Source: Acidobacteriota bacterium (lineage in GTDB: Bacteria; Acidobacteriota; Vicinamibacteria; Vicinamibacterales; JAFNAJ01). From it: a stretch of DNA of 64,000 nt. The notes under the pieces were generated by a model. It saw only the letters and a program-made list of their open reading frames with translations. It was not told where the DNA came from and ran no database searches. The stretch spans positions 119,138 to 183,137 of the forward strand of contig JAHDVP010000001.1 of assembly GCA_023384575.1 (NCBI GenBank), given 5' to 3'. Below are positions 12,973 through 42,792 of this stretch, in pieces (position 1 is the stretch's first letter; each line of letters opens with the position of its first letter). The position numbers were made by a program, and so were the translations under genes.

Positions 12973-12979
12973 CGTCAGG

Positions 12980-14194
12980 TCACACTCCCGCGGCCACGGC
13001 CGTCGTGGCGCGCGCGGCGCGCGCGGCGGTCTCGACCGGCAGCCCGTAGATCTTGATGAAGCCCTCGGCCGCGGTGTGGTCGAAGACGTCGCCCGCGTCG
13101 TACGTGGCGAGCGCGTGATCGTACAGCGCGAAGGGCGAGCGCCGCCCGACGATGCGGCAGTCGCCCTTGAAGAGCTTGAGACGGGCCACGCCGGTGACGC
13201 GCTGCTGGACCTGCTCGACGAATGCGTCGATGGCCTCGCGAATCGGCGCGAACCACACGCCGTTGTAGACGAGGTCGGCGTACTGCCGCCCGAGGTCGTG
13301 CTTCAGGCGATCGAGGTCGCGGGGGATGACCATCGCCTCGAGCTCGCGGTGCGCCGTGTGCAGCACGACCGCTGCGGGCGCCTCGTAGATCTCGCGCGAC
13401 TTGATGCCGACGAGGCGGTTCTCGACCATGTCGATGCGCCCCACCCCGTGCGCGCCGGCGATGGTCTCGAGGCTCGAGATGAGCTCGACGAGCGGCATCG
13501 CCACCCCGTTCACCTTGACCGGCACGCCGCGCTCGAACTCGATTTCCACGTAGGCGGGCGTGTCGGGCGCCTCGGCCGGCGCCTTGGTCAGGGTGTAGAT
13601 CTCCTCGGGAGGCTCGCACCACGGGTCCTCGAGCACGCCGCACTCGATCGACCGCCCCCAGAGGTTGGCGTCGGTGCTGTAGGGGCTGTCGACGGTGGCC
13701 GGCACGGGGATGCTGCGGGCCCGGGCGTAGGCGATCTCGTCGGGTCGGGTCATGCCCCAGACGCGGGCGGGAGCGATGACCTTGATCGTCGGGTTGAGCG
13801 CCCGCGCCGACACGTCGATCCGCACCTGGTCGTTGCCCTTGCCGGTGCAGCCGTGGGCGATGGCCGACGCACCCTCCATCTCCGCGATCTGCACGAGGTG
13901 CTTTGCGATGAGCGGCCGGCCGAGCGCCGTCGCGAGCGGGTACTTGTGCTCGTAGATGGCGCCGGCCTTGAGGGCCGGCAGCAGGTAGTCGCGAGCGAAC
14001 TCCTCGCGCACGTCGACGACGTGGGCGCGCACGGCGCCAACGGCGAGCGCGCGCTCGCGCACGTCGGCGAGCTCCTTGCCCTGCCCGAGGTCGAGCGTGA
14101 CGGCGACGATCTCGGCGTCGAAGTGATCGGCGAGCCAGGGGATGGCGACCGACGTGTCGAGGCCACCCGAGTAGGCGAGCACGATGCGTTCCAT
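12980..14194 (-). CDS. argG: Argininosuccinate synthase
   Basis: A 404-residue ATP-dependent ligase joining citrulline and aspartate. The N-terminal PP-loop AYSGGLDTSV binds ATP, and HGCTGKGNDQVR and SPYSTDANLWGRSIE are characteristic ArgG motifs. The length is normal (about 400). It lies 42 bp downstream of argR and 7 bp upstream of argH, so the minus-strand arm reads argR-argG-argH. Regulation is expected to be through the ARG-like box at the argR promoter. An earlier in-frame start is not supported. Confidence 0.97.
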   Translation of the reverse strand: MERIVLAYSGGLDTSVAIPWLADHFDAEIVAVTLDLGQGKELADVRERALAVGAVRAHVVDVREEFARDYLLPALKAGAIYEHKYPLATALGRPLIAKHLVQIAEMEGASAIAHGCTGKGNDQVRIDVSARALNPTIKVIAPARVWGMTRPDEIAYARARSIPVPATVDSPYSTDANLWGRSIECGVLEDPWCEPPEEIYTLTKAPAEAPDTPAYVEIEFERGVPVKVNGVAMPLVELISSLETIAGAHGVGRIDMVENRLVGIKSREIYEAPAAVVLHTAHRELEAMVIPRDLDRLKHDLGRQYADLVYNGVWFAPIREAIDAFVEQVQQRVTGVARLKLFKGDCRIVGRRSPFALYDHALATYDAGDVFDHTAAEGFIKIYGLPVETAARAARATTAVAAGV

Positions 14195-14236
14195 GGCGCG
14201 GGTCCTTTCGTGACGTGATGGATGAAGACGAAGCGC

Positions 14237-14689
14237 TCAGGCCCTGGCCCAAGCCTCCACCTGGCGGGCGAACGCCGCCGCGCGACGGCGGTCGCGGGCG
14301 ATGACGAGAACGGTGTCGTCGCCGGCAATCGTGCCGACGAGACCCGTCGACGACGACCGGTCGATGGCCAGCGCGAGCGGTTGGGCCTGGCCGGCATCGG
14401 TGCGCACGACGACGAACTGCTCGACGCGGTCGATGCGCCGGAGATACTCGACGACGGCCCGCCGCAGGGCGGCCTCGCCACCTTCGGGACGGCCGGCGGG
14501 AACGCCGGCCCGCTGGTAGGCGCCATCGGCGGCACGCTTGACGAGGCCCAGATCCTTGAGGTCGCGCGACAGCGTCGCCTGGGTCACGTCGAACCCGCGG
14601 GCGCTGAGACGCCGGCGGAGTCCTTCCTGGCTCGTGACGGCTTCACGATCGATGCACTCGAGGATGGCCGCTTGTCGGTAGGCCTTCAT
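14237..14689 (-). CDS. argR: Arginine repressor ArgR
   Basis: A 150-residue regulator of arginine metabolism. The N-terminal winged helix (about 1-70) contains the recognition helix region VTQATLSRDLKDLGLVK, with the SRDL signature. The C-terminal hexamerisation and arginine-binding domain (80-150) has GLVGTIAGDDTVLVIARD, where the Asp pair contacts arginine. It is the first gene of the minus-strand arm and diverges from argC. A palindrome overlapping its own promoter suggests autoregulation. The family usually binds pairs of ARG boxes as hexamers. Confidence 0.95.
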   Translation of the reverse strand: MKAYRQAAILECIDREAVTSQEGLRRRLSARGFDVTQATLSRDLKDLGLVKRAADGAYQRAGVPAGRPEGGEAALRRAVVEYLRRIDRVEQFVVVRTDAGQAQPLALAIDRSSSTGLVGTIAGDDTVLVIARDRRRAAAFARQVEAWARA

Positions 14690-14704
14690 GGCTATGCACT
14701 AAAC

Positions 14705-14718
14705 CGCATGAGCATACA
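14705..14718 (-). promoter_or_regulatory. ARG-box-like operator overlapping the argR promoter
   Basis: On the minus strand the sequence is TGTATGCTCATGCG. It has the ARG-box layout TGNAT-N4-ATNCA, with one mismatch at the last position, and overlaps the -10 hexamer of argR. ArgR binding here would block RNA polymerase. Only one box is visible; canonical operators often have two. Confidence 0.4.
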
Positions 14719-14740
14719 CAATTGTCCTGGCTCCTGCCAA
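14711..14740 (-). promoter_or_regulatory. argR-argG-argH promoter
   Basis: On the minus strand TTGGCA (14735-14740) is followed after 18 bp by TATGCT (14711-14716), 22 bp before the argR ATG. This is one of the two best sigma-70-like promoters in the window. Confidence 0.55.
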
Positions 14741-14781
14741 GCCCGATCACATCGACTATCGAAATCATTGAGAAATCATCA

Positions 14782-14810
14782 TTGACTGCGACGGCCACGT
14801 CGGCTATAAC
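14782..14810 (+). promoter_or_regulatory. argC-operon promoter
   Basis: TTGACT (14782-14787) and TATAAC (14805-14810) are separated by exactly 17 bp, within an A+T-rich patch unlike the surrounding DNA. Transcription should start near 14816-14818, leaving a leader of only about 20 bases before argC. Confidence 0.65.
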
Positions 14811-14822
14811 GGGAGTTCGCGC

Positions 14823-14836
14823 TGTATAGATATACA
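14823..14836 (+). promoter_or_regulatory. ARG-box-like palindrome at the argC start
   Basis: TGTATAGATATACA is a perfect inverted repeat (6-2-6) that also reads as TGTAT-N4-ATACA, the ARG-box arrangement. It lies just downstream of the predicted transcription start and reaches the first base of the argC ATG, so a bound ArgR hexamer could block initiation or promoter escape. Confidence 0.5.
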
Positions 14837-15834
14837 TGCTCATGTCCTCCTCCCTCTCGGTCGGCATCGTCGGCGCCACCGGCTACTCGGGCCAGGAGCT
14901 CGTTCGCCTGCTCGCACGGCATCCCCGGGCCAGACTCGCCGGGGCCTTCGGATCGAGTGCGAGCGAGCGGCCGCGCCGGCTGCCCGCGCTCGCGCGGCTG
15001 TGGGACGGCGAAGTCGTGCCCTTCACGCCCGACGCCCTCGTCGGGCGGGTCGACGCGGTCCTGCTCGCCCTGCCAGAGGCCGCGGCCGCCGAGACCGCGC
15101 CGCCGCTCGTCGACGCCGGCCTGCGGGTCTTCGACCTGTCGGGCGCGTTCCGCCTCCGCCAGGCCGGTCTCCGCCACCGCTGGTATCCGGCCACGGCCAC
15201 CTTGCCCGCCGGGACGGCCTATGGCCTCACCGAGCGCCACCGCGCCGACATCGCCGGGGCGCGGCTCGTCGCCTGCCCGGGTTGCTACCCTACGGCGGCG
15301 CTGCTCGCGCTCGGCCCCCTCGTCGACGCCGGCCTCGTCGAGGGCGACATCGTCATCGACGCGAAGTCGGGAATCTCGGGCGCGGGCAAGGCGCCGAGCG
15401 AGCGCACGCACTTCTCCGAGAACCACGGCAGCGTCGCGGCGTACAACGTCTTCCGGCACCGCCACACCGCGGAGATCGAGCAGCAGCTCGACCGTGCCGT
15501 GACGTTCGTCCCGCACCTCGTGCCGCTCGACCGCGGCATCCTCGAGACGATCTACGTGCGCGTCCGCCCAGGGACGACCCACGCCGACATCGAGGCCGCG
15601 CTCCAGTCGGCCTACGCCGACGCGCCGTTTGTCCGTCTCGTCGGCGCCGAGCTCCCCGAGATCAAGCACGTCGTCCATACGAACTTCTGCGACATCGGCT
15701 GGGTGCTCGACGCCACGGGCGGGCGCCTCGTGCTCGTCGCCTGCCTCGACAATCTCGTGAAGGGCGCGGCCGGCCAGGCCATCCAGAACCTGAACGTGGC
15801 CTTCGGCTTCGACGAGCGCGCGGGACTGCTATGA
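14836..15834 (+). CDS. argC: N-acetyl-gamma-glutamyl-phosphate reductase
   Basis: A 332-residue NADPH-dependent reductase, third step of arginine synthesis. GIVGATGYSGQELVRLL is the nucleotide-binding start and CPGCYPTA contains the catalytic cysteine (C150). SGISGAGKAPSE and HVVHTNFCDIGW are also family motifs. Two ATGs (14836 and 14842) could serve; a TAG just upstream excludes longer starts, and neither has a ribosome binding site, so the transcript may be nearly leaderless. It is the first gene of the plus-strand arm; its TGA overlaps the argB ATG. Confidence 0.96.
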   Translation: MLMSSSLSVGIVGATGYSGQELVRLLARHPRARLAGAFGSSASERPRRLPALARLWDGEVVPFTPDALVGRVDAVLLALPEAAAAETAPPLVDAGLRVFDLSGAFRLRQAGLRHRWYPATATLPAGTAYGLTERHRADIAGARLVACPGCYPTAALLALGPLVDAGLVEGDIVIDAKSGISGAGKAPSERTHFSENHGSVAAYNVFRHRHTAEIEQQLDRAVTFVPHLVPLDRGILETIYVRVRPGTTHADIEAALQSAYADAPFVRLVGAELPEIKHVVHTNFCDIGWVLDATGGRLVLVACLDNLVKGAAGQAIQNLNVAFGFDERAGLL

Positions 15835-16655
15835 GCCCTGCCCCTGCCTCGACCGTGGTGAAGCTCGGAGGCGAGCTGCTCGAACCGGGTGAGACGCTCG
15901 CGCCCCTGGCACGGGCGATCGCGACGCTGGCGTCGGCCACGCCAGTGGTCGTCGTGCACGGCGGCGGCCGGGAGATCGACGCCGAAGCCGCGCGGCGCGG
16001 CCTCGTGAAACAGGCGGTCGACGGCCTGCGCGTTACCGACGCCGCCACACTCGACGCCGTGGTCGCCGTGCTCGCCGGCGTCGTGAACACCCGGCTCGTG
16101 GCCGCCCTCGTTGCGGCCGGGGTCCGCGCCGTGGGGCTGACCGGGGCCGACGCGGCGCTCGTGCCGGTCGGCAAGGCCCCCCTCCACCGGGCCACCGACG
16201 GCCGCCTCGTCGACCTCGGGTTCGTCGGCGAGCCGGTGGCTTCGACGCCGGCGCTCGCCTTCGACCTGGTCGAGGCCGGCTACGTCCCGGTGATCGCTTC
16301 GATTGGGGTCGACCCGGAGTCGGGCGACCTCTACAACGTCAACGCCGACACGCTCGCGGCTCACGTAGCAGCCGCGGCGGGCGCCGCCCGGCTGGTCATC
16401 GCCGGGGCGACGACCGGGGTGCTCGATGGCCACGGGCACGTCATCGCCACACTCGATCGCGACGCCATCGCTGGACTCATCGCCGATGGCACGGCGTCGG
16501 CCGGGATGATCGCCAAGCTCGCTGCGAGCCTCCGCGCGCTCGAGGGCGGCGTTGCCGAGATCGTCGTGGCGTCGGGCCGCGTCTGGGCCACGCGTGGCGT
16601 CATCTCCGGTACGCGCATCGTCGGCCACGCGGTCACCGCAGGGGAACGGGCATGA
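15831..16655 (+). CDS. argB: Acetylglutamate kinase
   Basis: A 274-residue amino-acid kinase phosphorylating N-acetylglutamate. The N-terminal VVKLGGELL and VVVVHGGGREID form the ATP/substrate site of the family, and NVNADTLAAHVA is the conserved nucleotide-binding motif. Start and stop overlap neighbours as ATGA at both ends (argC before, argD after), a sign of translational coupling. The protein has only a few residues before the first strand, so it lacks the long N-terminal helix that marks arginine-sensitive hexameric kinases; feedback inhibition by arginine may therefore be weak here (inference). Confidence 0.95.
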   Translation: MSPAPASTVVKLGGELLEPGETLAPLARAIATLASATPVVVVHGGGREIDAEAARRGLVKQAVDGLRVTDAATLDAVVAVLAGVVNTRLVAALVAAGVRAVGLTGADAALVPVGKAPLHRATDGRLVDLGFVGEPVASTPALAFDLVEAGYVPVIASIGVDPESGDLYNVNADTLAAHVAAAAGAARLVIAGATTGVLDGHGHVIATLDRDAIAGLIADGTASAGMIAKLAASLRALEGGVAEIVVASGRVWATRGVISGTRIVGHAVTAGERA

Positions 16656-17893
16656 TCACGAACACCACGCGCTCCCTCGCCGAGATTCAGGCGCTCGAGT
16701 CGCGCCACATCGTCCAGACCTACAAGCGCCAGCCCGTGGCCTTCGTCCGCGGAGAGGGGGTGTTCCTGTTCGACGACGAGGGCCGGCGCTACCTTGATTG
16801 GCTGTCGGGCATCGGCGTGGCCGCCCTGGGGCACGCCCACCGGGGGCTTGCGGCGGCGCTGGCCGAGCAGGCGCAGGAGCTGGTGCACACCTCGAACCTC
16901 TACTTCCACGCGCTCCAGGGACGGGTCGCCGAGCGCTTGGCTTCGCTCTCGGGGCTGCCGCGCGTCTTCTTCTGCAACAGCGGCACCGAGGCCGTCGAGG
17001 CGTGCCTGAAGTTCGCGCGGCGTTACTGGCACGCGCAGGGCCGGACCGACCGCACCGAATTCGTCGCCCTCGCGCACGCCTTCGGCGGCCGGACCCTCGG
17101 GTCGCTGTCGGTGACGTGGGACGAGCACTACCGGGCGCCGTTCCAGCCGCTCGTGCCGGGCATCACCTTCGTGGCGCCCGGCGACGTCGATGCCCTCGAG
17201 GCGGCCGTGTCCGAGCGGACGGCCGCGATCGTCGCCGAGCCCATTCAGGGGGAGGGCGGCGTGCGCCCGCTGTCGTCGGCGTTTGCTGCGGCCATCGAAG
17301 CCGCCTGCGAGCGCACGGGGACGCTGCTCATCGCCGACGAGATTCAGTGCGGTCTCGGGCGGACGGGCCGGCCATTCTACTTCCAGGCACTCGGCCTCAC
17401 GCCCGATCTGGTCCCGGTGGGCAAGGCGCTCGGCGCCGGTTTCCCGGTGGGCGCGGCGCTCGTGTCGGAACCCGTGGCAGGAGCCCTGGCGTTTGGCGAC
17501 CACGGGACGACGTACGGCGGGAACCTGCTGGCCTGCCGCGCCGCGCTCGTCGTGCTCGACGAGCTCGAGGGTGGGCTGATGGACCACGTGCGCACGGTGG
17601 GCCAGCGCCTCGGCGCGGGCCTCTGCGAGCTCGCGGCGAAGCATCCGGCCGTGCGCGAGGTCCGCGGCGCCGGCCTCATGTGGGGCCTCGACCTCTCCGT
17701 CGACGCGGCCCCCGTCGTCGACGCGGCCCGCGCGCTGGGCCTGATCGTCAATCGGACCTCGTCGACCGTCGTGCGCCTGCTGCCGCCATTCGTGCTGAGC
17801 GAGGCGGAGGCCGACGAGGGCCTGGCGCTGCTCGACGCGGCACTCGCCGACGCCCTGTCACCCCGCGCCGCCGGGCAGGAAGGTGGCGCGTGA
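16652..17893 (+). CDS. argD: Acetylornithine aminotransferase
   Basis: A 413-residue class III PLP aminotransferase that converts N-acetylglutamate semialdehyde to N-acetylornithine. NSGTEAVEACLKFAR and IADEIQCGLGRTG are typical motifs, and K258 in VGKALGAGFP should bind PLP. HGTTYGGNLLAC also fits the family. The ATG overlaps the argB stop, and the TGA overlaps the next ATG as TGATG. Context within the arg operon favours acetylornithine over the related GABA or ornithine aminotransferases. Length is normal. Confidence 0.95.
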   Translation: MITNTTRSLAEIQALESRHIVQTYKRQPVAFVRGEGVFLFDDEGRRYLDWLSGIGVAALGHAHRGLAAALAEQAQELVHTSNLYFHALQGRVAERLASLSGLPRVFFCNSGTEAVEACLKFARRYWHAQGRTDRTEFVALAHAFGGRTLGSLSVTWDEHYRAPFQPLVPGITFVAPGDVDALEAAVSERTAAIVAEPIQGEGGVRPLSSAFAAAIEAACERTGTLLIADEIQCGLGRTGRPFYFQALGLTPDLVPVGKALGAGFPVGAALVSEPVAGALAFGDHGTTYGGNLLACRAALVVLDELEGGLMDHVRTVGQRLGAGLCELAAKHPAVREVRGAGLMWGLDLSVDAAPVVDAARALGLIVNRTSSTVVRLLPPFVLSEAEADEGLALLDAALADALSPRAAGQEGGA

Positions 17894-18501
17894 TGGCGAC
17901 TCCGGCGCGTTCGGCCCCGCCCGATCCCGCACTCTCTTTTCGCGTGGCTGCCGCGGCCGACGCAGGAACGATTCACGCGCTCATCGAGGCCAGCCTCGAC
18001 GAGGGGCACCTGCTGCCCCGCACGCTCGACGACGTTCGCGCGCACGCACCACGGTTCCAGGTGGTCGAGGACGAGGGCGTCGTCGTCGCCTGCGCCGAGC
18101 TGGCGCCGCTCAGCGCCGCGGTGGCCGAGGTCCGATCGCTCGTCGTCTCGGCGGCCTACCGCGGACGCGGCCTCGGTCCAGCGCTCGTCGAACGGCTGCG
18201 TCAGCAGGCGCGTGTCGACGGGTACGCGACGCTCTGCGCGTTCACCCACGAGCCGAGCCACTTCGTGCGCCTCGGCTTCTCGATCGTGCCGCACGTCTGG
18301 TTCCCGGAGAAGGTCGCCATCGACTGCACCGCGTGCCCGAAGTTCCGGCAGTGCGGCCAGCACGCGATGGCGCTGCCGCTCGACGGGGTGTCGCTCGCCG
18401 CGCCGCACGGCAGCCACACGCGGCTGCCGATCACCCTCGCGCGTCGGGGCCTGCCGGCCGCGCTGCCGCGCGGGGCTGCGCGGTTGAAGGTCATCGCGTG
18501 A
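17893..18501 (+). CDS. argA: Short GNAT-type N-acetylglutamate synthase
   Basis: A 202-residue GNAT acetyltransferase. The acetyl-CoA site is YRGRGLGPALVERL (about 89-102). A cysteine cluster DCTACPKFRQCGQHAM near residues 145-160 is shared with the short ArgA enzymes of actinobacteria and relatives and may bind metal. It would acetylate glutamate from acetyl-CoA to start or replenish the cycle. It overlaps argD by one base and argJ by four. Presence alongside argJ is common in organisms using ArgJ recycling. A GTG one codon earlier is an alternative start. The C-terminal 40 residues beyond the GNAT fold are of unknown role. Confidence 0.85.
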   Translation: MATPARSAPPDPALSFRVAAAADAGTIHALIEASLDEGHLLPRTLDDVRAHAPRFQVVEDEGVVVACAELAPLSAAVAEVRSLVVSAAYRGRGLGPALVERLRQQARVDGYATLCAFTHEPSHFVRLGFSIVPHVWFPEKVAIDCTACPKFRQCGQHAMALPLDGVSLAAPHGSHTRLPITLARRGLPAALPRGAARLKVIA

Positions 18502-19703
18502 CCGGCGCGCGAATCGACGGGGGTGTCACCGCGCCGCACGGCTTCATGGCGGCCGGTGTCTCGTGCGGCATCAAGGCGAAGGGCCTCGACCTCGCCCTCG
18601 TCGTCTCCGATCGCCAGGCGACCGCCGCCGGGGTGTTCACGACGAACCTGGCCGTAGCGGCACCGGTGGTCGTCTCGCGCGAGCATCTCGACAGCTCCGG
18701 CGGCCAGGCACGCGCCATCGTCGTCAACAGCGGGTGCGCCAACGCGTGCACGGGGCCGGGAGGACTCGAGGCAGCCCGCCTGATGGCCGCCGAGACCGCC
18801 CGGGCCGTCGGGTGCGACATCGAAGAGGTGCTCGTCGCCTCGACCGGCGTGATTGGCGTGGCACTCGATCGGCTCAAGGTGACGTCTGGCGTGATCGACG
18901 CCCACGGCACGCTCGGGCGCGACGGGCACACGGCCGCCTCGCTCGCCATCATGACGACCGACCCGTTTCCGAAGGAGGCCGCCGTCGAGGCGCATCTCGC
19001 CGGCGGCGTCGTGCGTATCGGCGGCATGGCCAAGGGTTCGGGCATGATCGAGCCCAGCATGGCGACGATGCTGGCGTTGCTGACGACGGACGCGTCGCTG
19101 GCGCCCGGCCTGCTCGGCCGCGCGCTCGGCGCCGCGGTGGAGGACACGTTCAACGCCATCACGGTCGACGGCGAGTGCTCGACCAACGACTCGGTGTTCC
19201 TGCTGGCCAACGGCGCGTCGGGCGTCACGGTCGGCGACGACGAGTTCGACGTGTTCGTCGACGCGCTGCGCGAGGTGTGCCTCGCCCTGGCGCTCGGCAT
19301 CGTCCGTGGCGGTGAGGGCGCGACGAAGCTCGTCACGGTCGTGGTCACCGGCGCGGCCTCGTACGCCGACGCGCGGCGCGCCGCGCGGGCCATCGCGAAC
19401 TCGCTGCTCGTGAAGACGGCCGTGCACGGCGGCGACCCGAACTGGGGGCGCCTCGTGGCCGTGGCGGGCCGCTCGGGCGTCGCCTTCACCCTGGAGCGCG
19501 CGAAGGTTCGCATCGGCGACGTGGTGCTCTTCGAGGACGGCCGTCCGTTCGACGAGCGGGCCGCGCGGGCCGCGTCCGTCCTCGCCTCGACCGACGTCGA
19601 GCTCGGCGTCGACCTCGGCACCGGAGGACGCCACGAAGCGACCATGTGGACGTGCGACCTGTCGGCCGACTACGTCCGCATCAACGCGGACTACCGGACG
19701 TGA
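18498..19703 (+). CDS. argJ: Ornithine acetyltransferase / N-acetylglutamate synthase ArgJ
   Basis: A 401-residue Ntn-type enzyme that moves the acetyl group from acetylornithine to glutamate. The self-cleavage site is visible as MATMLALLTTD, where T190 becomes the N-terminal nucleophile of the beta chain; GGMAKGSGMIEPSM just before it is the conserved alpha-chain end. HGGDPNWGRLVA is another family motif. The start is a GTG overlapping the previous stop as GTGA. Whether it is mono- or bifunctional cannot be read from sequence, but a separate ArgA suggests the transfer reaction is its main job. Confidence 0.96.
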   Translation: MTGARIDGGVTAPHGFMAAGVSCGIKAKGLDLALVVSDRQATAAGVFTTNLAVAAPVVVSREHLDSSGGQARAIVVNSGCANACTGPGGLEAARLMAAETARAVGCDIEEVLVASTGVIGVALDRLKVTSGVIDAHGTLGRDGHTAASLAIMTTDPFPKEAAVEAHLAGGVVRIGGMAKGSGMIEPSMATMLALLTTDASLAPGLLGRALGAAVEDTFNAITVDGECSTNDSVFLLANGASGVTVGDDEFDVFVDALREVCLALALGIVRGGEGATKLVTVVVTGAASYADARRAARAIANSLLVKTAVHGGDPNWGRLVAVAGRSGVAFTLERAKVRIGDVVLFEDGRPFDERAARAASVLASTDVELGVDLGTGGRHEATMWTCDLSADYVRINADYRT

Positions 19704-19714
19704 GCCAAAGGCCC

Positions 19715-20653
19715 ATGAAGAAGGACTTCCTGTCGATTCTCGATCTCGACGCCGAGACGCTGGCCGTCTGCCTGAACCTCTCGGCCGAACTGAAGCGCGA
19801 CCGCGGGCTCGGTCGACGCGCCCCGTCGGCCGACGCGCTCGGCGGCCGCCACGTGGCGCTCCTCTTCGAGAAACCGTCGCTGCGGACCCGGTCGACCTTC
19901 GAGATTGCGATCCGCGAGCTCGGCGGCGAGGTGATCTCCCCTGCGCAGGACGCCACGCTCGGCGGGCGCGAGTCGATTGCCGACGTCGCGCGCAATCTCG
20001 AGCGCTGGGTGGCCGCCGTGGTCATCCGCACCTTCGCGCAGGCGAAACTGGAGGCGTTCGCGGCTGCCGCGGCCCGGCTGCACGTGGTCAACGCACTCAC
20101 GAACGAGGAACATCCCTGTCAGGCTCTTGCCGATTGCCTCACGTTGCGCGAGCACTGGAACACGCTGCCCGGGCGCACGCTGGCCTTCGTGGGCGACGGC
20201 AACAACGTCGCCGCGTCGCTCGCGCAGGCATGCCTGATGCTCGGCATCAGCGTGCACGTGGCATCGCCGGCCGGCTACGACCTGCCCCCCGACGTCGTCG
20301 CGGCGGCGGCGGCCGTGGCCCGTGGCGGGGCGACGCTGACCTCGTTCCGCGATCCGCACGAGGCCGTGCGCGAGACCGACGCGGTCTACACCGACGTCTG
20401 GACGTCGATGGGACAGGAGGCCGAGAACGCCGCCCGCCGCGTGGCGTTCGCGCCGTACCGCGTCGATGCCGACCTCATGGCGTCGGCCCGGCCCGGCGCG
20501 ATCTTCATGCACTGCCTGCCGGCGCACCGCGGCGACGAGGTCACCGACGAGGTGATCGACGGCCCGGCGTCGGTGGTCTTCGATCAGGCCGAGAACCGGC
20601 TGCACACGCAGAAGGCGCTCCTGCAGATGCTCGTGGCGCCGGAGTCGATCTGA
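19715..20653 (+). CDS. argF: Ornithine carbamoyltransferase
   Basis: A 312-residue carbamoyltransferase making citrulline from ornithine. Motifs in order: SLRTRSTFE (carbamoyl-phosphate binding), HPCQALAD, DVWTSMGQE and FMHCLPAHRG (ornithine-binding Cys loop). These fit ornithine rather than acetylornithine carbamoyltransferase. I chose ATG 19715, with AAAGG upstream; a GTG at 19700 overlaps the argJ stop as GTGA, the arrangement used by argJ, and is a real alternative adding five residues. Its stop overlaps the following small gene. Confidence 0.95.
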   Translation: MKKDFLSILDLDAETLAVCLNLSAELKRDRGLGRRAPSADALGGRHVALLFEKPSLRTRSTFEIAIRELGGEVISPAQDATLGGRESIADVARNLERWVAAVVIRTFAQAKLEAFAAAAARLHVVNALTNEEHPCQALADCLTLREHWNTLPGRTLAFVGDGNNVAASLAQACLMLGISVHVASPAGYDLPPDVVAAAAAVARGGATLTSFRDPHEAVRETDAVYTDVWTSMGQEAENAARRVAFAPYRVDADLMASARPGAIFMHCLPAHRGDEVTDEVIDGPASVVFDQAENRLHTQKALLQMLVAPESI

Positions 20654-20874
20654 TGCTGAAGGGCTCGCGCGAGGGCGTTCTGGTGAGAGTCCAGCCGCTC
20701 AGTATCCACGGCCAGGTGTCGCTCGACGTGCACTACCGCTTCGAGGACGACGCCGACGGCCAGGTGCGCGTGGCCCGCATCGGGCCGGAAGCGGTGTCTG
20801 CGGCGCTCGAGCCGGGCGACCGCGTTCGGCTCGAGTTCCTCCTCGGCGTCGTCACGAGCGTGACGAAGGCGTAG
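20653..20874 (+). CDS. Small conserved-looking protein at the end of the arg operon
   Basis: A 73-residue protein translated from an ATG that overlaps the argF stop (TGATG). The reading frame has the codon bias of the operon. The sequence alternates hydrophobic and charged residues (VLVRVQPLSIHGQVSLDVHY, DRVRLEFLLGVVTSVTKA), suggesting a small all-beta fold; there is no signal peptide, membrane helix or metal motif. No family is recognised. Position implies co-expression with arginine synthesis, perhaps as a regulator or enzyme partner, but this is inference only. Confidence 0.7.
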   Translation: MLKGSREGVLVRVQPLSIHGQVSLDVHYRFEDDADGQVRVARIGPEAVSAALEPGDRVRLEFLLGVVTSVTKA

Positions 20875-33897: not shown

Positions 33898-34365
33898 ATG
33901 ATTGACGGTCTTCGTTCGGCACGTTTCGCTCGCCTCCTGCTCGCTCCGGTCGTCATCACGGCGTCGCTCGGTGCGGCCCAGCGCACCCCGGACGGCCTGA
34001 CGGTCGAGGGCGCCTGGGTGCGCATGGTGCCGCGCTCGCAGGCCACGACCGGCGGCTTCCTCACCCTCGTGAACCGCAGCTCGGTGGACCAAGTACTGGT
34101 CGACGCGCGCTCGCCGCGCGCGAAGACCGTCGAGCTCCACGAGATGATCCATGAAGGCGACCGGATGCGCATGCGCCAGGTCGAGCGCATCGTGGTACCG
34201 GCCGGCCAGGCGGTGCAGTTGAAGCCGGGCGGCCTGCACCTCATGCTCTTCGAGGTGACGACGCCCCTTCAGGCCGGAGACAAGGTGCCGATCACCCTCG
34301 TCTTCGACGACGGGTCGACGATCGACGTCGAGGCGGAGGCCCGGATGCCCGAGGGGCATCGATGA
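33898..34365 (+). CDS. PCu(A)C copper chaperone
   Basis: A 155-residue periplasmic copper-binding protein. After a short signal-like segment, the Cu(I) site follows the family pattern exactly: H81, then ten residues, M92, then 21 residues, H114-x-M116 (HLM). These proteins deliver copper to the CuA or CuB centre of cytochrome c oxidase. The gene overlaps the SCO1 gene as ATGA, and that pairing supports the assignment. The signal peptide, MIDGLRSARFARLLLAPVVI then ASLGAAQ, is short but plausible. Confidence 0.92.
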   Translation: MIDGLRSARFARLLLAPVVITASLGAAQRTPDGLTVEGAWVRMVPRSQATTGGFLTLVNRSSVDQVLVDARSPRAKTVELHEMIHEGDRMRMRQVERIVVPAGQAVQLKPGGLHLMLFEVTTPLQAGDKVPITLVFDDGSTIDVEAEARMPEGHR

Positions 34366-35009
34366 CGCGGCCGAGGGCCGTCGACGCGTGGCGTGCCGCG
34401 GCGTGGCTCGTTCTGGGATGCGGGCTGTGGCTGGGGGCTGCCGCGTGTTCGGGAACGCGCGGGCCGGAACCGCCCGACGGGCGGCCCGACATCGAGTCCG
34501 AGCCGCTGCCCATCGGCGGCGACTTCGTGCTCACCTCGCACCGGGGCGAACCCTTCGACCTGAAGGAGGCGCGTGGCAGGGTCGTGCTGCTCTTCTTCGG
34601 GTTCACGCTGTGCCCGGATGTCTGTCCGACGACGCTCGCCACGCTCGCTCGGGTGTCGGAGTTGCTCGGCGACGACCGCTCGCGGATGATGCCCGTCTTC
34701 GTGAGCGTCGACCCCGACCGCGACTCGGCGGAGCGCCTGCAGGAGTACCTCGAGTTCTTCGGGCTCGACGGACACGGTGTCGCCGCAACCGGCACGGCGC
34801 AAGAGATCGACCGCGTGGTGAACCAGTACGCCGCCTTCTACGAGTTCGAGCAATCGACCTCGGAGGCGGGGTACCTGGTGAACCACACGACGACGCTCTA
34901 CCTGATCGACCAGCGGGGCCGTGTGCGGCACCTCTTCAGGTATGGCGACTCGGCGGCGCGCATTGCCGACGGGGTAAGACAGGTGCTGGCCGAGCGCCAG
35001 GAGAGCTGA
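34362..35009 (+). CDS. SCO1/SenC copper-delivery protein
   Basis: A 215-residue thioredoxin-fold protein with the SCO copper motif FTLCPDVCP (CxxxC) and the distant His in LVNHTTTLYLID. The N-terminal hydrophobic segment (about 10-28) ends GAAACSG, which could be a lipoprotein cleavage site or a signal anchor. SCO proteins metallate or reduce the CuA site of cytochrome oxidase together with PCu(A)C, encoded immediately upstream with a 4-bp overlap. No oxidase genes are in the window. Confidence 0.93.
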   Translation: MTRPRAVDAWRAAAWLVLGCGLWLGAAACSGTRGPEPPDGRPDIESEPLPIGGDFVLTSHRGEPFDLKEARGRVVLLFFGFTLCPDVCPTTLATLARVSELLGDDRSRMMPVFVSVDPDRDSAERLQEYLEFFGLDGHGVAATGTAQEIDRVVNQYAAFYEFEQSTSEAGYLVNHTTTLYLIDQRGRVRHLFRYGDSAARIADGVRQVLAERQES

Positions 35010-35298
35010 GCCGCGCCAGCGCGCCGTACATGAGTTGGGGGCGCCGCGCGGTGCGACGCCCCCGTGAACGACACCACCGGACCGGCTCCCCAGCACTCAC
35101 GGCTCCCAGCCGCAAACAGCCCGGTGGCACTCCGTGCTGGTGCAAACCCGACGCCATCACCGCGCGGCGGCGTTGACCCCGCGCTGGCCGCGCGATGGCG
35201 CGGCGTGGAAGCGCGAAATCCCCACGAATCCAGCGAACACGGCCGCGAAGCCATGACGTTTTCGGGAGACCGGTTACGATTCTGGTGATCGGCAGACC

Positions 35299-35334
35299 GG
35301 CCAACCGATTGGCCTGGTGGCCAACCAATTGGCC
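35299..35334. repeat. Two tandem 16-bp inverted repeats
   Basis: GGCCAACCGATTGGCC (35299-35314) and GGCCAACCAATTGGCC (35319-35334) differ by one base and are spaced 20 bp apart. Each is a 6-4-6 hairpin. They may act as a bidirectional terminator or be part of a repeat family. Confidence 0.7.
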
Positions 35335-35394
35335 ACCTGAACCGCCCCCGGCGGGTCCATCGCGGCAGGGCCTTCGGGTGCCGTAGCGGCTGTC

Positions 35395-35458
35395 GTAGCG
35401 GCAGGGGCGTCAGGAGCCGTCGCGGGAGTTTCCAGTGCCGTAGCGGCAGGGGCGTCAG
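35395..35458. repeat. 19-bp direct repeat, two copies at 45-bp spacing
   Basis: GTAGCGGCAGGGGCGTCAG occurs at 35395-35413 and 35440-35458; partial copies (GTAGCGGC) lie just upstream near 35383. The second copy forms half of the adjoining hairpin. Confidence 0.75.
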
Positions 35459-35467
35459 CCCCTGCCG
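35444..35467 (-). terminator. Strong hairpin after the DGQHR gene
   Basis: CGGCAGGGGC, a four-base loop (GTCA) and GCCCCTGCCG form a perfect 10-bp stem 6 bp past the stop of the minus-strand gene. There is no T-run, so it could be a repeat-derived or factor-assisted terminator rather than a classical one. Confidence 0.4.
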
Positions 35468-35473
35468 ACCCCC

Positions 35474-36619
35474 TCAGAGGCCCGCGCCCTCGGGGTATTG
35501 AAGGGCGAGGCGCAGTTCCTTCGAGAGCGACTCGATCGACGTCGCGCTGAGGGTCCACATGCCCGCGGTCTCGAACCGGGCATCGCCGAGCCGGCGGCCC
35601 CACGGCGCGATCACGCGCCCGATCGCCCGGTAGTCGGCCCGGTCGGCCCGCTCCTGATCGAGACGCTTCACCACGTCGGGCGCCACACGGATGAACGCCC
35701 GCAGGGCGGTGGCCGACTTGATGCTGTACTTCCGGCCGTTCCACGCCGGCCCGAACAGGATGGCGATCTGCTTGAAGTAGTTCACGAAGAAGCGCTTCGA
35801 CTCCTCGCGGAACTCGCCGAGCTGCCGCGCGGTGCCGAGCGCATCCGACGCGAAGAGGCGCTTCAACTCCTGCGCGATCGGCGCCTGGGCCACCTTGCCC
35901 CTGCCCACGCCGAGCAGCTTGATCTGCCCGTAGAGCGGTGAGTCGTCGCGGTCGTTGAGCGCGCGCACCACGTCGTGCGCCGCGGCCAGGTCGGCATCGG
36001 CGTAGAGTTGCCGCCCCGAGAGCGACACGAGGTGCGAAGGGTTGAGCCGCGTGTGCTTGGCGTTGATGGTGACGAACATCTGCACGACGTGGTCTTCGGG
36101 CAGCTTGTCGAAGATCACGGCGGGTACGGTGAACGCCTCGTGCCCGAACTGCTCGAGATCCGTGTGCAGGGCCAGCAGGCGGTGCTGGCCGTCAATGGCG
36201 CGGAGGATGCCCTCGCGCTCGGGCAGCTTCAGCACGCCGAGGCTGTTCCACGGGCCATCGACCGGCTCGAAGCGGAGCGGCTCGTCCGACGAGATGATCA
36301 CCGCCCCGGGAATCGAGGGCAGGTCGCGCGCCTCCCGGCACTGCTCGTAGTACTGGACGAGTTCCTCGATCTTCCGCCGGATGATCTGGCGCTGGTAAGC
36401 CTGCTCGTTGGCCGCGATGCGGCGCTCGAGCAACGACCAGTTCACCTTCGACTTCACCGGGGACTGGCGGCCGCGGACGGGCTGGTGGCGCGGGTCGCCG
36501 TAGCTCAGAACCTCGAAACGGACGAGCTTGTCGACATCGCGAGCGGTCAACGACGCCTGGTAGAACGACACCCCGAACTGCTGCATGCGGATCGCGGCGA
36601 CGGTAATCATGACGCGCAT
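35474..36619 (-). CDS. DGQHR-domain protein (DndB-like), solitary
   Basis: A 381-residue protein whose motif AIDGQHRLLAL (DGQHR at 143-147) defines the DGQHR domain. Family members include DndB, which regulates phosphorothioate DNA modification, and proteins of several phage-defence islands. Here none of dndACDE, BREX or other defence genes is nearby; instead the gene follows three two-component genes on the same strand, 55 bp after the hybrid kinase stop. FVTINAKHTRLNPSHLVSLS is a further conserved-looking stretch. I chose ATG 36619; ATG 36610 is an alternative. The function in this setting is unknown. Confidence 0.82.
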   Translation of the reverse strand: MRVMITVAAIRMQQFGVSFYQASLTARDVDKLVRFEVLSYGDPRHQPVRGRQSPVKSKVNWSLLERRIAANEQAYQRQIIRRKIEELVQYYEQCREARDLPSIPGAVIISSDEPLRFEPVDGPWNSLGVLKLPEREGILRAIDGQHRLLALHTDLEQFGHEAFTVPAVIFDKLPEDHVVQMFVTINAKHTRLNPSHLVSLSGRQLYADADLAAAHDVVRALNDRDDSPLYGQIKLLGVGRGKVAQAPIAQELKRLFASDALGTARQLGEFREESKRFFVNYFKQIAILFGPAWNGRKYSIKSATALRAFIRVAPDVVKRLDQERADRADYRAIGRVIAPWGRRLGDARFETAGMWTLSATSIESLSKELRLALQYPEGAGL

Positions 36620-36674
36620 CTTACTGACGCGCCCGGTGTCGCTCAACGGGTTTCTTGACAGCCGGCCGCCCAGC

Positions 36675-38222
36675 TCAGCGCCGCCTGCCCGTCCAGAACA
36701 CACGCCCGACCGCGTCGATGAGCGAAGCCGGGGTGAACGGTTTCTCGAGAAAGCCGGCCTCCTCGGCGCCCTCGCCCGGGCCCCCGTAGCCGGAGATGAA
36801 CAGGACTTTGAGCCCTGGCAGCACGAGCTTCAGCTTGGCCGCCAGCTGCCGGCCGGACATCTGGGGCAACACGATATCGGTCACGAGCAGGTCGGGCGGC
36901 GCCCCCTCGAACGCCCGCTCGAGCGCCTCGACGGCCAGCGCGGCATCCCGCACCTCATAGCCGTGAGCTCGCAGGCTCGCGGCCGCCATGGCGCGGACGC
37001 TCGCATCGTCTTCGACGAGGAGAACTTGGATCCCGGCCCCGGTGGGCCATCGGGCCGTGTCCCGCGGCTCGTCCCTGGCCGCCGCCGTGGGCCGGGCCGA
37101 CCTCGGCAGCAGCAGGTCGAACGCCGCGCCTCCCCGTGGCAGGTTCTCGACCAACACGTGCCCCCCGTGGGCCTTGGCGATGCCGTAGCAGATGGCCAGA
37201 CCAAGGCCCGTGCCGCCCGTCTCGCCCTTGGTCGTGAAGAACGGCTCGAAGATGCTTCCGAGCAGGGGTTCGGGGATGCCCGGACCTTCGTCGCACACCC
37301 GGAAGCGCACGTACTCGCCGGGCGGCAGGTCGATGGCCGGCGCGCCCTCCTGCACAGCGACCTCGACGTTGCCGACCTCGATCGTGATCCGGCCGCCATC
37401 GGGTGTGGCGTCGCGGGCGTTGACGACGAGGTTCACGAGGACCTGCTCCACCTGGCCGGCATCGACGTCGATGGGCCACGTTCCCGGGGCCATGACTGGC
37501 ACGAACTCCCACCGCGCGCCGAGCAGGCGGCGCAGCATGCCGTCGAGCCGGAGTACCAGCGCGTCCGGGTCGACGGAGGCGCGTCGTCCGGTCTGGCGCC
37601 GGCCGAAGGTGAGCAGCCGCCTGGCCAGGTCGGCCGCTCGACGTCCCGCGTCCAGAATCTCGCCGGTGTACGCCCGGGCCTCTTCGTCTTGGGCCACGTG
37701 CGCGGTGAGAAGCTCGGCGTTGCCGAGGATGACGGTCAGCAGGTTGTTGAAGTCGTGGGCGACGCCGCCCGCCAGCCGCCCGAGGGCGTCCATCCGCTGG
37801 GCGAGCTGCAGCTGGTTCTCGAGGCGGCGCCTGGCCCGGACGTGGTCCCACTGGCGCGACACCCGCTGCGCGATGCGGGGCATCGCCGCCAGCGTGACGT
37901 CCGACTTGACGATGTAGTCGATCGCACCGCGCTTGATGGCGTCGACGGCCACCTGCTCGTCGCCCTGGCTGGTCATGATGACGACGGGGAAGGCGGGCTC
38001 CGCGTCCTCGCCGGGGAGCAACGCGGTCCCGTCGCCATCGGGCAGCCGGAAGTCGGCGACGACCACATCGGGCTGAGCCGCTTCGACCGCCGCCTGAGCT
38101 GAGCGAAGCGTCGTGGCGATGCGTAACTCGGCCCGGCCGGACGCGTCCTCGAAAGCGCGCTCGACCAGCGCGACGTGGGCGGGTTCGTCTTCGACGAGCA
38201 GGACGTTGAGCGCCCGGTCCAC
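36675..38222 (-). CDS. Hybrid histidine kinase (REC-HisKA-HATPase-REC)
   Basis: A 515-residue soluble kinase. The first receiver (about 5-122) has D57 in VVVADFRLPDGDG and K106. HisKA follows with H156 in LAGGVAHDFNNLLT, the H-D-F-N-N subtype. The ATPase domain contains NLVVNARDATPDGG, DEGPGIP and GGTGLGLAI. A second receiver (about 390-510) includes LLVTDIVLPQMSG. There is no membrane helix or sensor domain, so it probably receives phosphate through its first receiver from the kinase two genes upstream. The start is GTG, 4 bp after the stop of the response regulator gene. Confidence 0.93.
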   Translation of the reverse strand: MDRALNVLLVEDEPAHVALVERAFEDASGRAELRIATTLRSAQAAVEAAQPDVVVADFRLPDGDGTALLPGEDAEPAFPVVIMTSQGDEQVAVDAIKRGAIDYIVKSDVTLAAMPRIAQRVSRQWDHVRARRRLENQLQLAQRMDALGRLAGGVAHDFNNLLTVILGNAELLTAHVAQDEEARAYTGEILDAGRRAADLARRLLTFGRRQTGRRASVDPDALVLRLDGMLRRLLGARWEFVPVMAPGTWPIDVDAGQVEQVLVNLVVNARDATPDGGRITIEVGNVEVAVQEGAPAIDLPPGEYVRFRVCDEGPGIPEPLLGSIFEPFFTTKGETGGTGLGLAICYGIAKAHGGHVLVENLPRGGAAFDLLLPRSARPTAAARDEPRDTARWPTGAGIQVLLVEDDASVRAMAAASLRAHGYEVRDAALAVEALERAFEGAPPDLLVTDIVLPQMSGRQLAAKLKLVLPGLKVLFISGYGGPGEGAEEAGFLEKPFTPASLIDAVGRVFWTGRRR

Positions 38223-38226
38223 CAGA

Positions 38227-38691
38227 CTACCCCGAGGTCGAAGGCGACCGGTTCCAGACGAGCCAGTAGAGGCCCAGTTCCTTCATCAGGTCGCCGAACC
38301 GGTCGAAGTCGATGGGTTTGACGAGATAGCTGTTGACATGACGGTGGTAGGCCCGATGCATGTCCTGCTCGGCCGCCGACGTCGTGAGCATGACCACTGG
38401 AATGCTCTGCAGGTCGGGCGTCGTCTTGACGGCGGCGAGCACCTCGACGCCGTCCACCTTCGGGAGCCTCAGGTCGAGCAGGATGAGCTGCGGGCGCGGA
38501 CTGTTCGCCGCGTCGGACCAACGACCGCGCCGGTTGAGGTAGTCGAGGGCGTCGGCGCCATCGGTGAGGTGCACGATTTCGCTCTGCAGGTCGTGGTCCT
38601 CGAAGCCGCGCCGAATCAACTCGGCGTGGGCGGGGTCGTCTTCGACGAGCAGGACCCGCATCGGCGGGTGGCTCTGCGCCCGGTGACTCAT
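38227..38691 (-). CDS. Single-domain CheY-like response regulator (Rcp1 type)
   Basis: A 154-residue receiver with no output domain. VLLVEDDPAHAELIRRGF, D73 in LILLDLRLPKVDG and VNSYLVKPIDFDRF are typical of the Rcp1 group, which pairs with phytochrome-like kinases. The gene starts 4 bp after the PAS kinase stop and ends 4 bp before the hybrid kinase start, so phosphorelay among the three is very likely. The ATG at 38691 has no clear ribosome binding site; translation may be coupled to the upstream gene. Confidence 0.9.
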   Translation of the reverse strand: MSHRAQSHPPMRVLLVEDDPAHAELIRRGFEDHDLQSEIVHLTDGADALDYLNRRGRWSDAANSPRPQLILLDLRLPKVDGVEVLAAVKTTPDLQSIPVVMLTTSAAEQDMHRAYHRHVNSYLVKPIDFDRFGDLMKELGLYWLVWNRSPSTSG

Positions 38692-38695
38692 CGGT

Positions 38696-39835
38696 TCATT
38701 CGCTCCGATCCCGGGACGCCTCGGGCCGCGGCAGCGAGAACCCGAAGACGGTCCCGCCGCCGGGCGTCCCGGTCGACTCGACCCACACCCGGCCGCCGTG
38801 GGTTTCGACGATTCGCTTGACGATGGCCAGCCCGATACCGCTGCCTTCGCTATCCCGGTCGAGCTTCGTGAACAGGCCGAACACGCGCTCATGATAGGCC
38901 GGATCGATGCCCGGGCCGTTGTCGCGCACACGGAAGCGCACGAAGGTCCCATCGACATCGGCCGAGATCCACACCTGGGGGTCGGCCCCGTCGGCCGCGT
39001 ACTTCGCGGCGTTCTCCACGAGATTCTGGAACACCTCGAGCACGCGGTGCCGGTCGGCGACGACGGTCGGCAAGTGCTCGGGGACGTGGACCCGGACGCT
39101 GCGCTCGGTCAGGCGGCCCGCGACGGCGGTGACCGCTTCGCGCGCCACCTCGGCCGGATCGAACTCGCCTGGCCGGTGCACCACGCGGCCGACGCGCGAC
39201 AACTGCAGGAGGTCCTCCAGCAGGCGATCCATCGTGGATGCGGCCGATCGAATGTGGTCGAGGTCGGTGGCCACGCGGGCGGTGTCGCCGCGCGCGAGGT
39301 CGCGCTCGAGGAACCCGAGGAACCCCTTGATGGTGACCAGGGGGCTCTTGAGGTCGTGCGAGACCGCGTAGGTGAAGCGCTCGAGCTCGGCCTGCCTGGC
39401 CTCGAGGTCGGCGACGAGGCGCTCGCGCTCGCTCTCGGCCCGGTGCCGTTCGCTGACGTCGCGGATGATGGCAGTGAACATGCGCCGGCCGGAGACGGAC
39501 GCGCAGGCAATCGACACCTCGATCGGGAACTCGGTGCCATCGGGTCTCTGGCCGGTCACGCGGCCCCATCCCATCGTCCGGCTCGATACGCCGGCCTCGC
39601 CAAACGCGTGCATCCACCGGGCGTGGTCGGCCCTGTAGCGTGGCGGCAGGAAGCGCTCGAGCGACGAGCCGAGCGCCTCGGCCGCGGCACACCCGAACAT
39701 GCGCTCGGCTGCGGCGTTGAAGACGACGATGCGCTGGTCCTCGTCGACGACGAGAATGGCGTCCATCGCTGAAGCCACGACGGCCGAGAGCAGCCGGCCT
39801 GCTTCGTCGGGAATCTCCGACCAGGCACCAGACAC
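38696..39835 (-). CDS. PAS-domain sensor histidine kinase
   Basis: A 379-residue soluble kinase. A PAS domain (about 12-128: DAILVVDEDQRIVVFNAAAE, then MFTAIIRDVSERHRAE) is followed by a short coiled coil, HisKA with H160 in YAVSHDLKSPL, and an ATPase domain with NLVENAAKYA, DNGPGID and GSGIGLAIVKRI. The HDLKSPL form and the following Rcp1-like regulator match phytochrome-like kinases, but no GAF/PHY light-sensing domain is present. The start is GTG. It opens a three-gene signalling operon that also reaches the DGQHR gene. Confidence 0.93.
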   Translation of the reverse strand: MSGAWSEIPDEAGRLLSAVVASAMDAILVVDEDQRIVVFNAAAERMFGCAAAEALGSSLERFLPPRYRADHARWMHAFGEAGVSSRTMGWGRVTGQRPDGTEFPIEVSIACASVSGRRMFTAIIRDVSERHRAESERERLVADLEARQAELERFTYAVSHDLKSPLVTIKGFLGFLERDLARGDTARVATDLDHIRSAASTMDRLLEDLLQLSRVGRVVHRPGEFDPAEVAREAVTAVAGRLTERSVRVHVPEHLPTVVADRHRVLEVFQNLVENAAKYAADGADPQVWISADVDGTFVRFRVRDNGPGIDPAYHERVFGLFTKLDRDSEGSGIGLAIVKRIVETHGGRVWVESTGTPGGGTVFGFSLPRPEASRDRSE

Positions 39836-40008
39836 CAGAACCTTGCTCCCTGGATGGGGCCCGAGGCGAGGGCGAGCCGGTGGGTGCCGCCACGCGCGAC
39901 GGGCGAGGTTGGCCGATTCTACCCCTCTGGGCCGCTCGACTTGCGGCGACCGGCCGGCGCGGCCGCACGGTCGGCGGCCGGGAGTAAGATACCCCGCGAG
40001 GTGCCGAG

Positions 40009-42792
<2,784 letters not shown>

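What the first reader, a model, noticed from the sequence alone, without database searches (positions are those of the whole stretch)
35474..39835. Solitary DGQHR protein in a two-component operon
DGQHR proteins are known mainly from DNA phosphorothioation (DndB) and other defence islands. Here the only neighbours on the strand are a PAS kinase, an Rcp1-like receiver and a hybrid kinase, with gaps of 4, 4 and 55 bp. A signalling operon ending in a DGQHR gene would point to a regulatory role not tied to Dnd.
Basis: partly seen in the sequence, partly recalled or inferred. Interest (0 to 1): 0.55.

Follow-up and report, generated by a model that had tools for sequence, protein, structure and literature searches.

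The report
Stand-alone DGQHR gene, own promoter
A protein related to DNA-modification regulators turns out to be an old, slowly changing, single-copy gene of one order of soil bacteria with its own promoter; the signalling genes beside it here look like a chance insertion.

Summary
The genes are as described: a DGQHR (DndB-family) protein preceded on the minus strand by a hybrid kinase, a receiver and a PAS kinase, with gaps of 55, 4 and 4 bp. The DGQHR start is more likely ATG 36610, so the gap is 64 bp. The "signalling operon" reading fails. Of 76 homologous loci with an upstream gene (window included), only the window has two-component genes there. In 20 of the 76, including a same-family genome, the M14-peptidase gene that lies beyond the kinases in the window sits directly divergent to the DGQHR gene, so the three genes look inserted. 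A promoter conserved across the order (A-tract, TTGAG, 17-18 nt, TAnnAT) lies inside the window's gap. The protein occurs in 80 of 120 genomes of the order, at 73-80% identity in full-length copies, and its tree follows family lines. It is not tied to Dnd: DndC was found in 3 of 120 genomes, all lacking this gene; DpdA in none. The predicted fold is ParB/sulfiredoxin-like with DGQHR, QR and FxxxN motifs invariant. Most likely it is a stand-alone, vertically inherited NTP-binding switch. Its biochemical role is inferred, not shown.

The parts
35474..36610 (-). Stand-alone DGQHR/DndB-family gene, 378 aa from ATG 36610 (381 aa from ATG 36619). ParB/Srx-like N-terminal half with QR (73-74), DGQHR (140-144) and FxxxN (179-183); helical basic C-terminal half
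36618..36646 (-). Conserved promoter: -35 TTGAGC (36646-36641), 17-nt spacer, -10 TAAGAT (36623-36618), 7 nt before ATG 36610; short A-rich stretch just upstream
   Evidence: Only match to TTGAGN18-19TANNAT in the own genome
36675..38222 (-). Hybrid histidine kinase (receiver-HisKA-HATPase-receiver), part of the inserted cassette
38227..38691 (-). Single-domain response regulator, part of the inserted cassette
38696..39835 (-). PAS-domain histidine kinase, first gene of the inserted cassette
40009..42792 (+). M14-peptidase-domain protein: the gene directly divergent from the DGQHR gene in 20 of 76 loci; marks the far edge of the insertion

Best explanation
This is a stand-alone member of the DGQHR (DndB-type) family, inherited vertically as a single-copy chromosomal gene in most families of its order and read from its own conserved sigma-70-type promoter. 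Shown by computation: family membership, strong conservation of the protein, lack of any constant partner gene, the conserved promoter inside the gap, and absence of dnd, dpd and pglZ marker genes from this genome. Supported by a mid-confidence model: a ParB/sulfiredoxin-like nucleotide-binding half and a helical, basic second half. Inferred, not shown: it binds an NTP (ATP or GTP, as a DndB-like protein does in PMC12704722) and acts as an NTP-dependent switch on DNA, as DndB does on its own promoter (PMC4507180), but on a chromosomal target unrelated to DNA phosphorothioation. The two-component cassette was inserted between the M14-peptidase gene and the DGQHR gene in the window's lineage. 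It may add read-through transcription but is not part of the system.
For: 80 of 120 genomes of the order (own included; 65 of 89 high-quality ones) carry it, 73-80% identical in full-length copies. 26 aligned orthologues: mean column identity 83%. Tree of 51 rows: 8 families need 7 changes, the least possible; shuffled mean 28.1, 0 of 200 as low. Neighbours vary: 22 different upstream and 29 different downstream genes in 76 loci each. TTGA-N17-20-TAnnAT upstream in 49 of 79 loci, against a mean of 0.2 (max 1) in 50 shuffles and 6 of 371 other upstream regions. Same-family loci L140 and L141 have the M14 gene directly divergent and no kinases. DndC 3 of 120, all in family f8 and all without this gene; DpdA 0 of 120. 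Fold: PadC Z 8.5, ParB 7.9, sulfiredoxin 5.4, SspE 4.3, mostly over residues ~9-188. Profile hits to DpdB, DndB and a ParB-like phrog. C-terminal half pI 9.9.
Against: No nucleotide or DNA binding was tested. Model pLDDT is 77 and pTM 0.52; Foldseek's best PDB hit has E 0.2, and Z under 8 may mean only a common arrangement. 40 of 120 genomes lack the gene, including all listed f8 genomes and the two single-contig genomes (G006, G018), so it is not essential. 30 of 79 upstream regions lack the strict promoter pattern, among them the same-family L032. I derived that pattern from the same sequences. Many loci come from MAGs, and the two collections share contigs.
Confidence: 0.6

Rival explanations
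1. Signalling operon: the kinases and receiver control or co-express the DGQHR protein as one functional unit.
For: Same strand, short gaps; read-through over 55-64 bp is plausible, as no terminator-like site was found there.
Against: None of the other 75 loci with an upstream gene has it. The cassette interrupts an otherwise divergent M14/DGQHR pair. The kinase lacks close relatives in 60 genomes. The DGQHR promoter lies in the gap.
Confidence: 0.07
2. It is an enzyme, not a DNA switch: a ParB/Srx-fold kinase or nucleotide hydrolase in central metabolism, perhaps near arginine or cell-wall pathways that lie close by.
For: The fold includes ATP-using enzymes (sulfiredoxin; SerK per PMC12704722). 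Arginine-biosynthesis genes lie in the fetched flank of 39 of 79 loci, 32 of 46 with at least 7 kb downstream. Conservation is of enzyme grade (compare ArgG).
Against: No constant metabolic neighbour or operon partner. Arg linkage is absent in many loci, and no arg gene was recognised beside the 50% relatives. Basic C-terminal half.
Confidence: 0.25
3. It is a solitary defence factor, or a distant partner of an undescribed DNA modification.
For: Family is known from Dnd and Dpd systems. Weak relatives occur in a few phages and plasmids.
Against: No sign of mobility: the tree follows families, the wider neighbourhood is stable, and 10 common neighbour families gave only one PADLOC hit, a general methyltransferase domain. 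DndC, DndD, DpdA and PglZ absent from the own genome. Ssp genes were not searched.
Confidence: 0.12

Closest known systems
DndB (PF14072), regulator of DNA phosphorothioation operons
   Same: Family profile match; QR, DGQHR and FxxxN motifs; likely ParB-type fold
   Different: No DndC or DndD in the genome; single gene; inherited vertically; DGQHR_dnd_1 model matched at 44 bits against a cut-off of 450
DpdB (NF041060), 7-deazaguanine DNA-modification system
   Same: Second-best NCBIfam match, 50.3 bits over residues 68-296
   Different: Far under the 300-bit cut-off; DpdA in 0 of 120 genomes
Orphan ParB-CTPase-fold proteins (PadC, Noc, KorB, VirB; PMC12704722)
   Same: Fold of residues ~9-188; GxxR-type P motif within DGQHR
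   Different: No parA link was noticed; sequence similarity very weak (about 11-16% in most structural alignments)
SspE / GmrSD (DUF262)
   Same: DGQQR-like motif and ParB/Srx fold (PMC4619093; SspE Z 4.3)
   Different: Pfam gave no DUF262 match; no nuclease domain found

Membership tests
DGQHR domain family (TIGR03187) | Score over the curated cut-off | tested here: met
   128.7 bits against 58.85
DGQHR domain family (TIGR03187) | QR pair, DGQHR and FxxxN motifs (PMC4619093) | tested here: met
   All invariant in 15 diverse members, A2
DndB of a Dnd system | Linked dndCDE, or dnd genes elsewhere in the genome | tested here: not met
   DndC and DndD absent from the own genome
DndB of a Dnd system | Binds a palindrome in its own promoter | not testable with these tools
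   Needs gel shift
DpdB | Score over the equivalog cut-off and DpdA in the genome | tested here: not met
   50.3 of 300 bits; DpdA 0 of 120
ParB/Srx-fold NTP-binding proteins | Fold | tested here: inconclusive
   The top 12 VIA rows are ParB-like or Srx, best Z 8.5; Foldseek E 0.2
ParB/Srx-fold NTP-binding proteins | NTP binding | not testable with these tools
   Needs purified protein
Two-component operon member | Conserved linkage to kinase or receiver genes | tested here: not met
   Window only, of 76 loci with an upstream gene

The most novel reading that the evidence does not exclude
A ParB/Srx-fold NTP switch that became a core chromosomal DNA-binding protein of an entire bacterial order, kept for its cellular role and free of any DNA-modification or defence system; the Dnd and Dpd versions would then be one mobile offshoot of a wider class of housekeeping DGQHR proteins.
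Probability: 0.25. Interest if true: 0.65.

Novelty: new variant of a known kind. Interest (0 to 1): 0.42.

Why it matters
DGQHR proteins are read almost entirely through DNA phosphorothioation and defence. A version that is vertically inherited, order-wide, single-copy and about as conserved as argininosuccinate synthase suggests that the family also has a cellular role unrelated to those systems. It gives a clean subject (one gene, one promoter, no partners) for asking what this fold does on its own. It also warns against inferring function from one genome's neighbourhood, since the kinase cassette is private to the window's lineage.

Tried and rejected
The first structure model (26 near-identical orthologues) had pLDDT 53 and was not used; adding viral relatives raised it to 77. 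Sequence searches of solved structures found nothing with the single protein and only one weak unrelated hit with the profile. The generic promoter scan found nothing in 35200-40100: the site has 4 of 6 matches in each box, 8 of 12 in all, under the tool's threshold. A regulon carrying the same promoter was looked for: TTGAGN18-19TANNAT occurs once in the genome, at this gene; the reversed control pattern occurs twice, so one hit is not a depletion. Plasmids, phages and IMG/VR gave only weak relatives or none. No paper joining 'Vicinamibacter' with 'DndB', or 'Acidobacteri' with 'DNA sulfur modification protein', was found. Of the 5 papers holding phrases such as 'DndB-like' or 'solitary DndB', the passages I read of four describe no such gene; the fifth, PMC2442094, I did not open. 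The DpdB paper search returned noise. Rows dropped: L102 gave no gene calls in my caller and L098 is cut at a contig end; both are outside the promoter count. L136 was fetched, but my caller found no DGQHR protein in it, so it is not in A2.

Full report
OBSERVATION. The four minus-strand genes and their gaps are as reported. The first gene product is a DGQHR protein: TIGR03187 at 128.7 bits (cut-off 58.85), Pfam DndB at 53.2 bits (cut-off 29.1). The other three carry histidine-kinase, receiver and PAS domains. The genome (5.9 Mb, 112 contigs, listed as 100% complete) has one DGQHR protein.

HOW COMMON AND HOW CONSERVED. In the order to which the genome belongs (named records among the hits are mostly Acidobacteriota MAGs, several labelled Vicinamibacterales), 80 of 120 genomes, own included, have it at E<=1e-10, and 65 of 89 high-quality ones. 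Full-length copies are 73-80% identical to the window's. In a draw of 396 genomes of the phylum, 53 match at E<=1e-5. Of these, 35 (own included) are in the order, two others are at 50-52%, five are at 33-35%, and the rest are weaker; the four listed genomes of other families in the class lack it. As a yardstick, ArgG from the same window matches 95 of 120 genomes at E<=1e-50, many at only 35-55%, which suggests displaced copies. The DGQHR gene shows no such tail within the order.

VERTICAL INHERITANCE. A tree of 51 orthologues needs 7 changes for 8 families, the least possible (shuffled mean 28.1; 0 of 200 as low). Five of the eight families form fully supported groups; f1, the window's own, mixes with f4 at weak support. 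Absence follows clades too. Listed f8 genomes lack it, as do f4/g7 and f11/g14. G116 keeps only two short pieces of it, which suggests decay after loss of use.

NEIGHBOURHOOD. I called genes in 81 loci (80 plus the window); L102 yielded none. Genes similar to the three two-component proteins occur in the window and in four other loci (L075, L090, L093, L101), never directly upstream of the DGQHR gene; in L090 and L093 the gene is convergent, downstream. Among 76 loci with an upstream gene there are 22 different neighbours. The commonest (20 of 76) is the M14-peptidase gene, divergent. In the window that gene is at 40009-42792, beyond the kinases. In the same-family genomes G001 (L140) and G002 (L141) it is directly divergent from the DGQHR gene, with no kinase; L141 also keeps the window's downstream order of membrane protein, hydantoinase A and B, and MFS (names by similarity and recall, the hydantoinase A-type match being). 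The simplest account is insertion of three genes. The hybrid kinase finds, apart from itself, only two partial matches (47-48%) at E<=1e-90 in 60 genomes. On the far side, arginine-biosynthesis genes (window 11.6-20.7 kb; named) lie in the fetched flank of 39 of 79 loci. So the wider region is conserved while the immediate partners are not.

OWN PROMOTER. Upstream of the orthologues' start (M-I-x-V) lies TTGA-N17-20-TAnnAT in 49 of 79 loci. Dinucleotide shuffles give a mean of 0.2 (max 1 of 50), and 6 of 371 other upstream regions have it. With TTGG allowed it is 55 of 79, preceded by an A-tract at -9 to -4. The pattern was drawn from these same sequences, so the contrast is post hoc. It is the only such match in the genome. 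A near-leaderless transcript is implied (7 of 55 loci have 12 bases or fewer). L032, of the same family, lacks the strict pattern.

FOLD AND MECHANISM. QR, DGQHR and FxxxN are invariant in 15 diverse members, the features that PMC4619093 (passages read) gives for the DGQHR domain. The second model (pLDDT 76.9, pTM 0.52) aligns, mostly over residues ~9-188, with PadC (Z 8.5, 100 residues, 2.6 A), ParB (7.9, 7.8), KorB (6.7), sulfiredoxin (5.4) and SspE (4.3). Foldseek itself gives PadC first, but at E 0.2. PHROGs gives a ParB-like match, E 8e-5. PMC12704722 (passages) reports that a DndB-like protein binds ATP and GTP. PMC4507180 (passages) reports that DndB binds its own operon's promoter. From these I infer an NTP-dependent switch with a basic C-terminal half (pI 9.9). 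Neither nucleotide nor DNA binding was tested.

NOT DND. DndC: 3 of 120 genomes (2 over cut-off), all family f8 and all without this gene. DpdA: 0 of 120. DndD and PglZ: none in the own genome. Ssp-specific genes were not searched. Ten common neighbour families gave one PADLOC hit, a methyltransferase-type domain. PMC10853773 and PMC8569181 (passages) discuss DndB within Dnd systems; the passages do not describe a stand-alone lineage.

VERDICT. The finding becomes a stand-alone, slowly evolving DGQHR lineage with a dedicated promoter. Its role is open, with a testable default.

Noticed in passing
window 11596-20653: Arginine biosynthesis cluster (argH, argG, argR divergent from argC, argB, argD, argJ, argF), linked to the DGQHR gene in about half of the relatives' loci.
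   Followed up: partly
window 20653-20874: 73-aa protein of no known family directly after argF; relatives in 8 of 79 loci.
   Followed up: partly
window 33898-35009: Copper chaperone PCu(A)C and SCO1/SenC gene pair just downstream.
   Followed up: no
L048 and L067: Two different DGQHR copies on contigs of one MAG (VFYY01): a true duplicate or a mixed bin.
   Followed up: no
L033, L048, L067, L074, L110, L070, L108: Records labelled Acidimicrobiia, Cyanobacteria or Gemmatimonadaceae carry this gene at 72-77% identity; the MAG names are probably wrong.
   Followed up: no
G116 contig C56: Only two short adjacent pieces of the gene (residues 4-42 and 317-379) remain: a decaying copy.
   Followed up: no
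L138 and L139 (genome G144): A DGQHR subfamily about 34% identical (MLATxxxQK start) with two copies in one genome, one followed closely by a glycosyltransferase-like and a TPR gene.
   Followed up: partly
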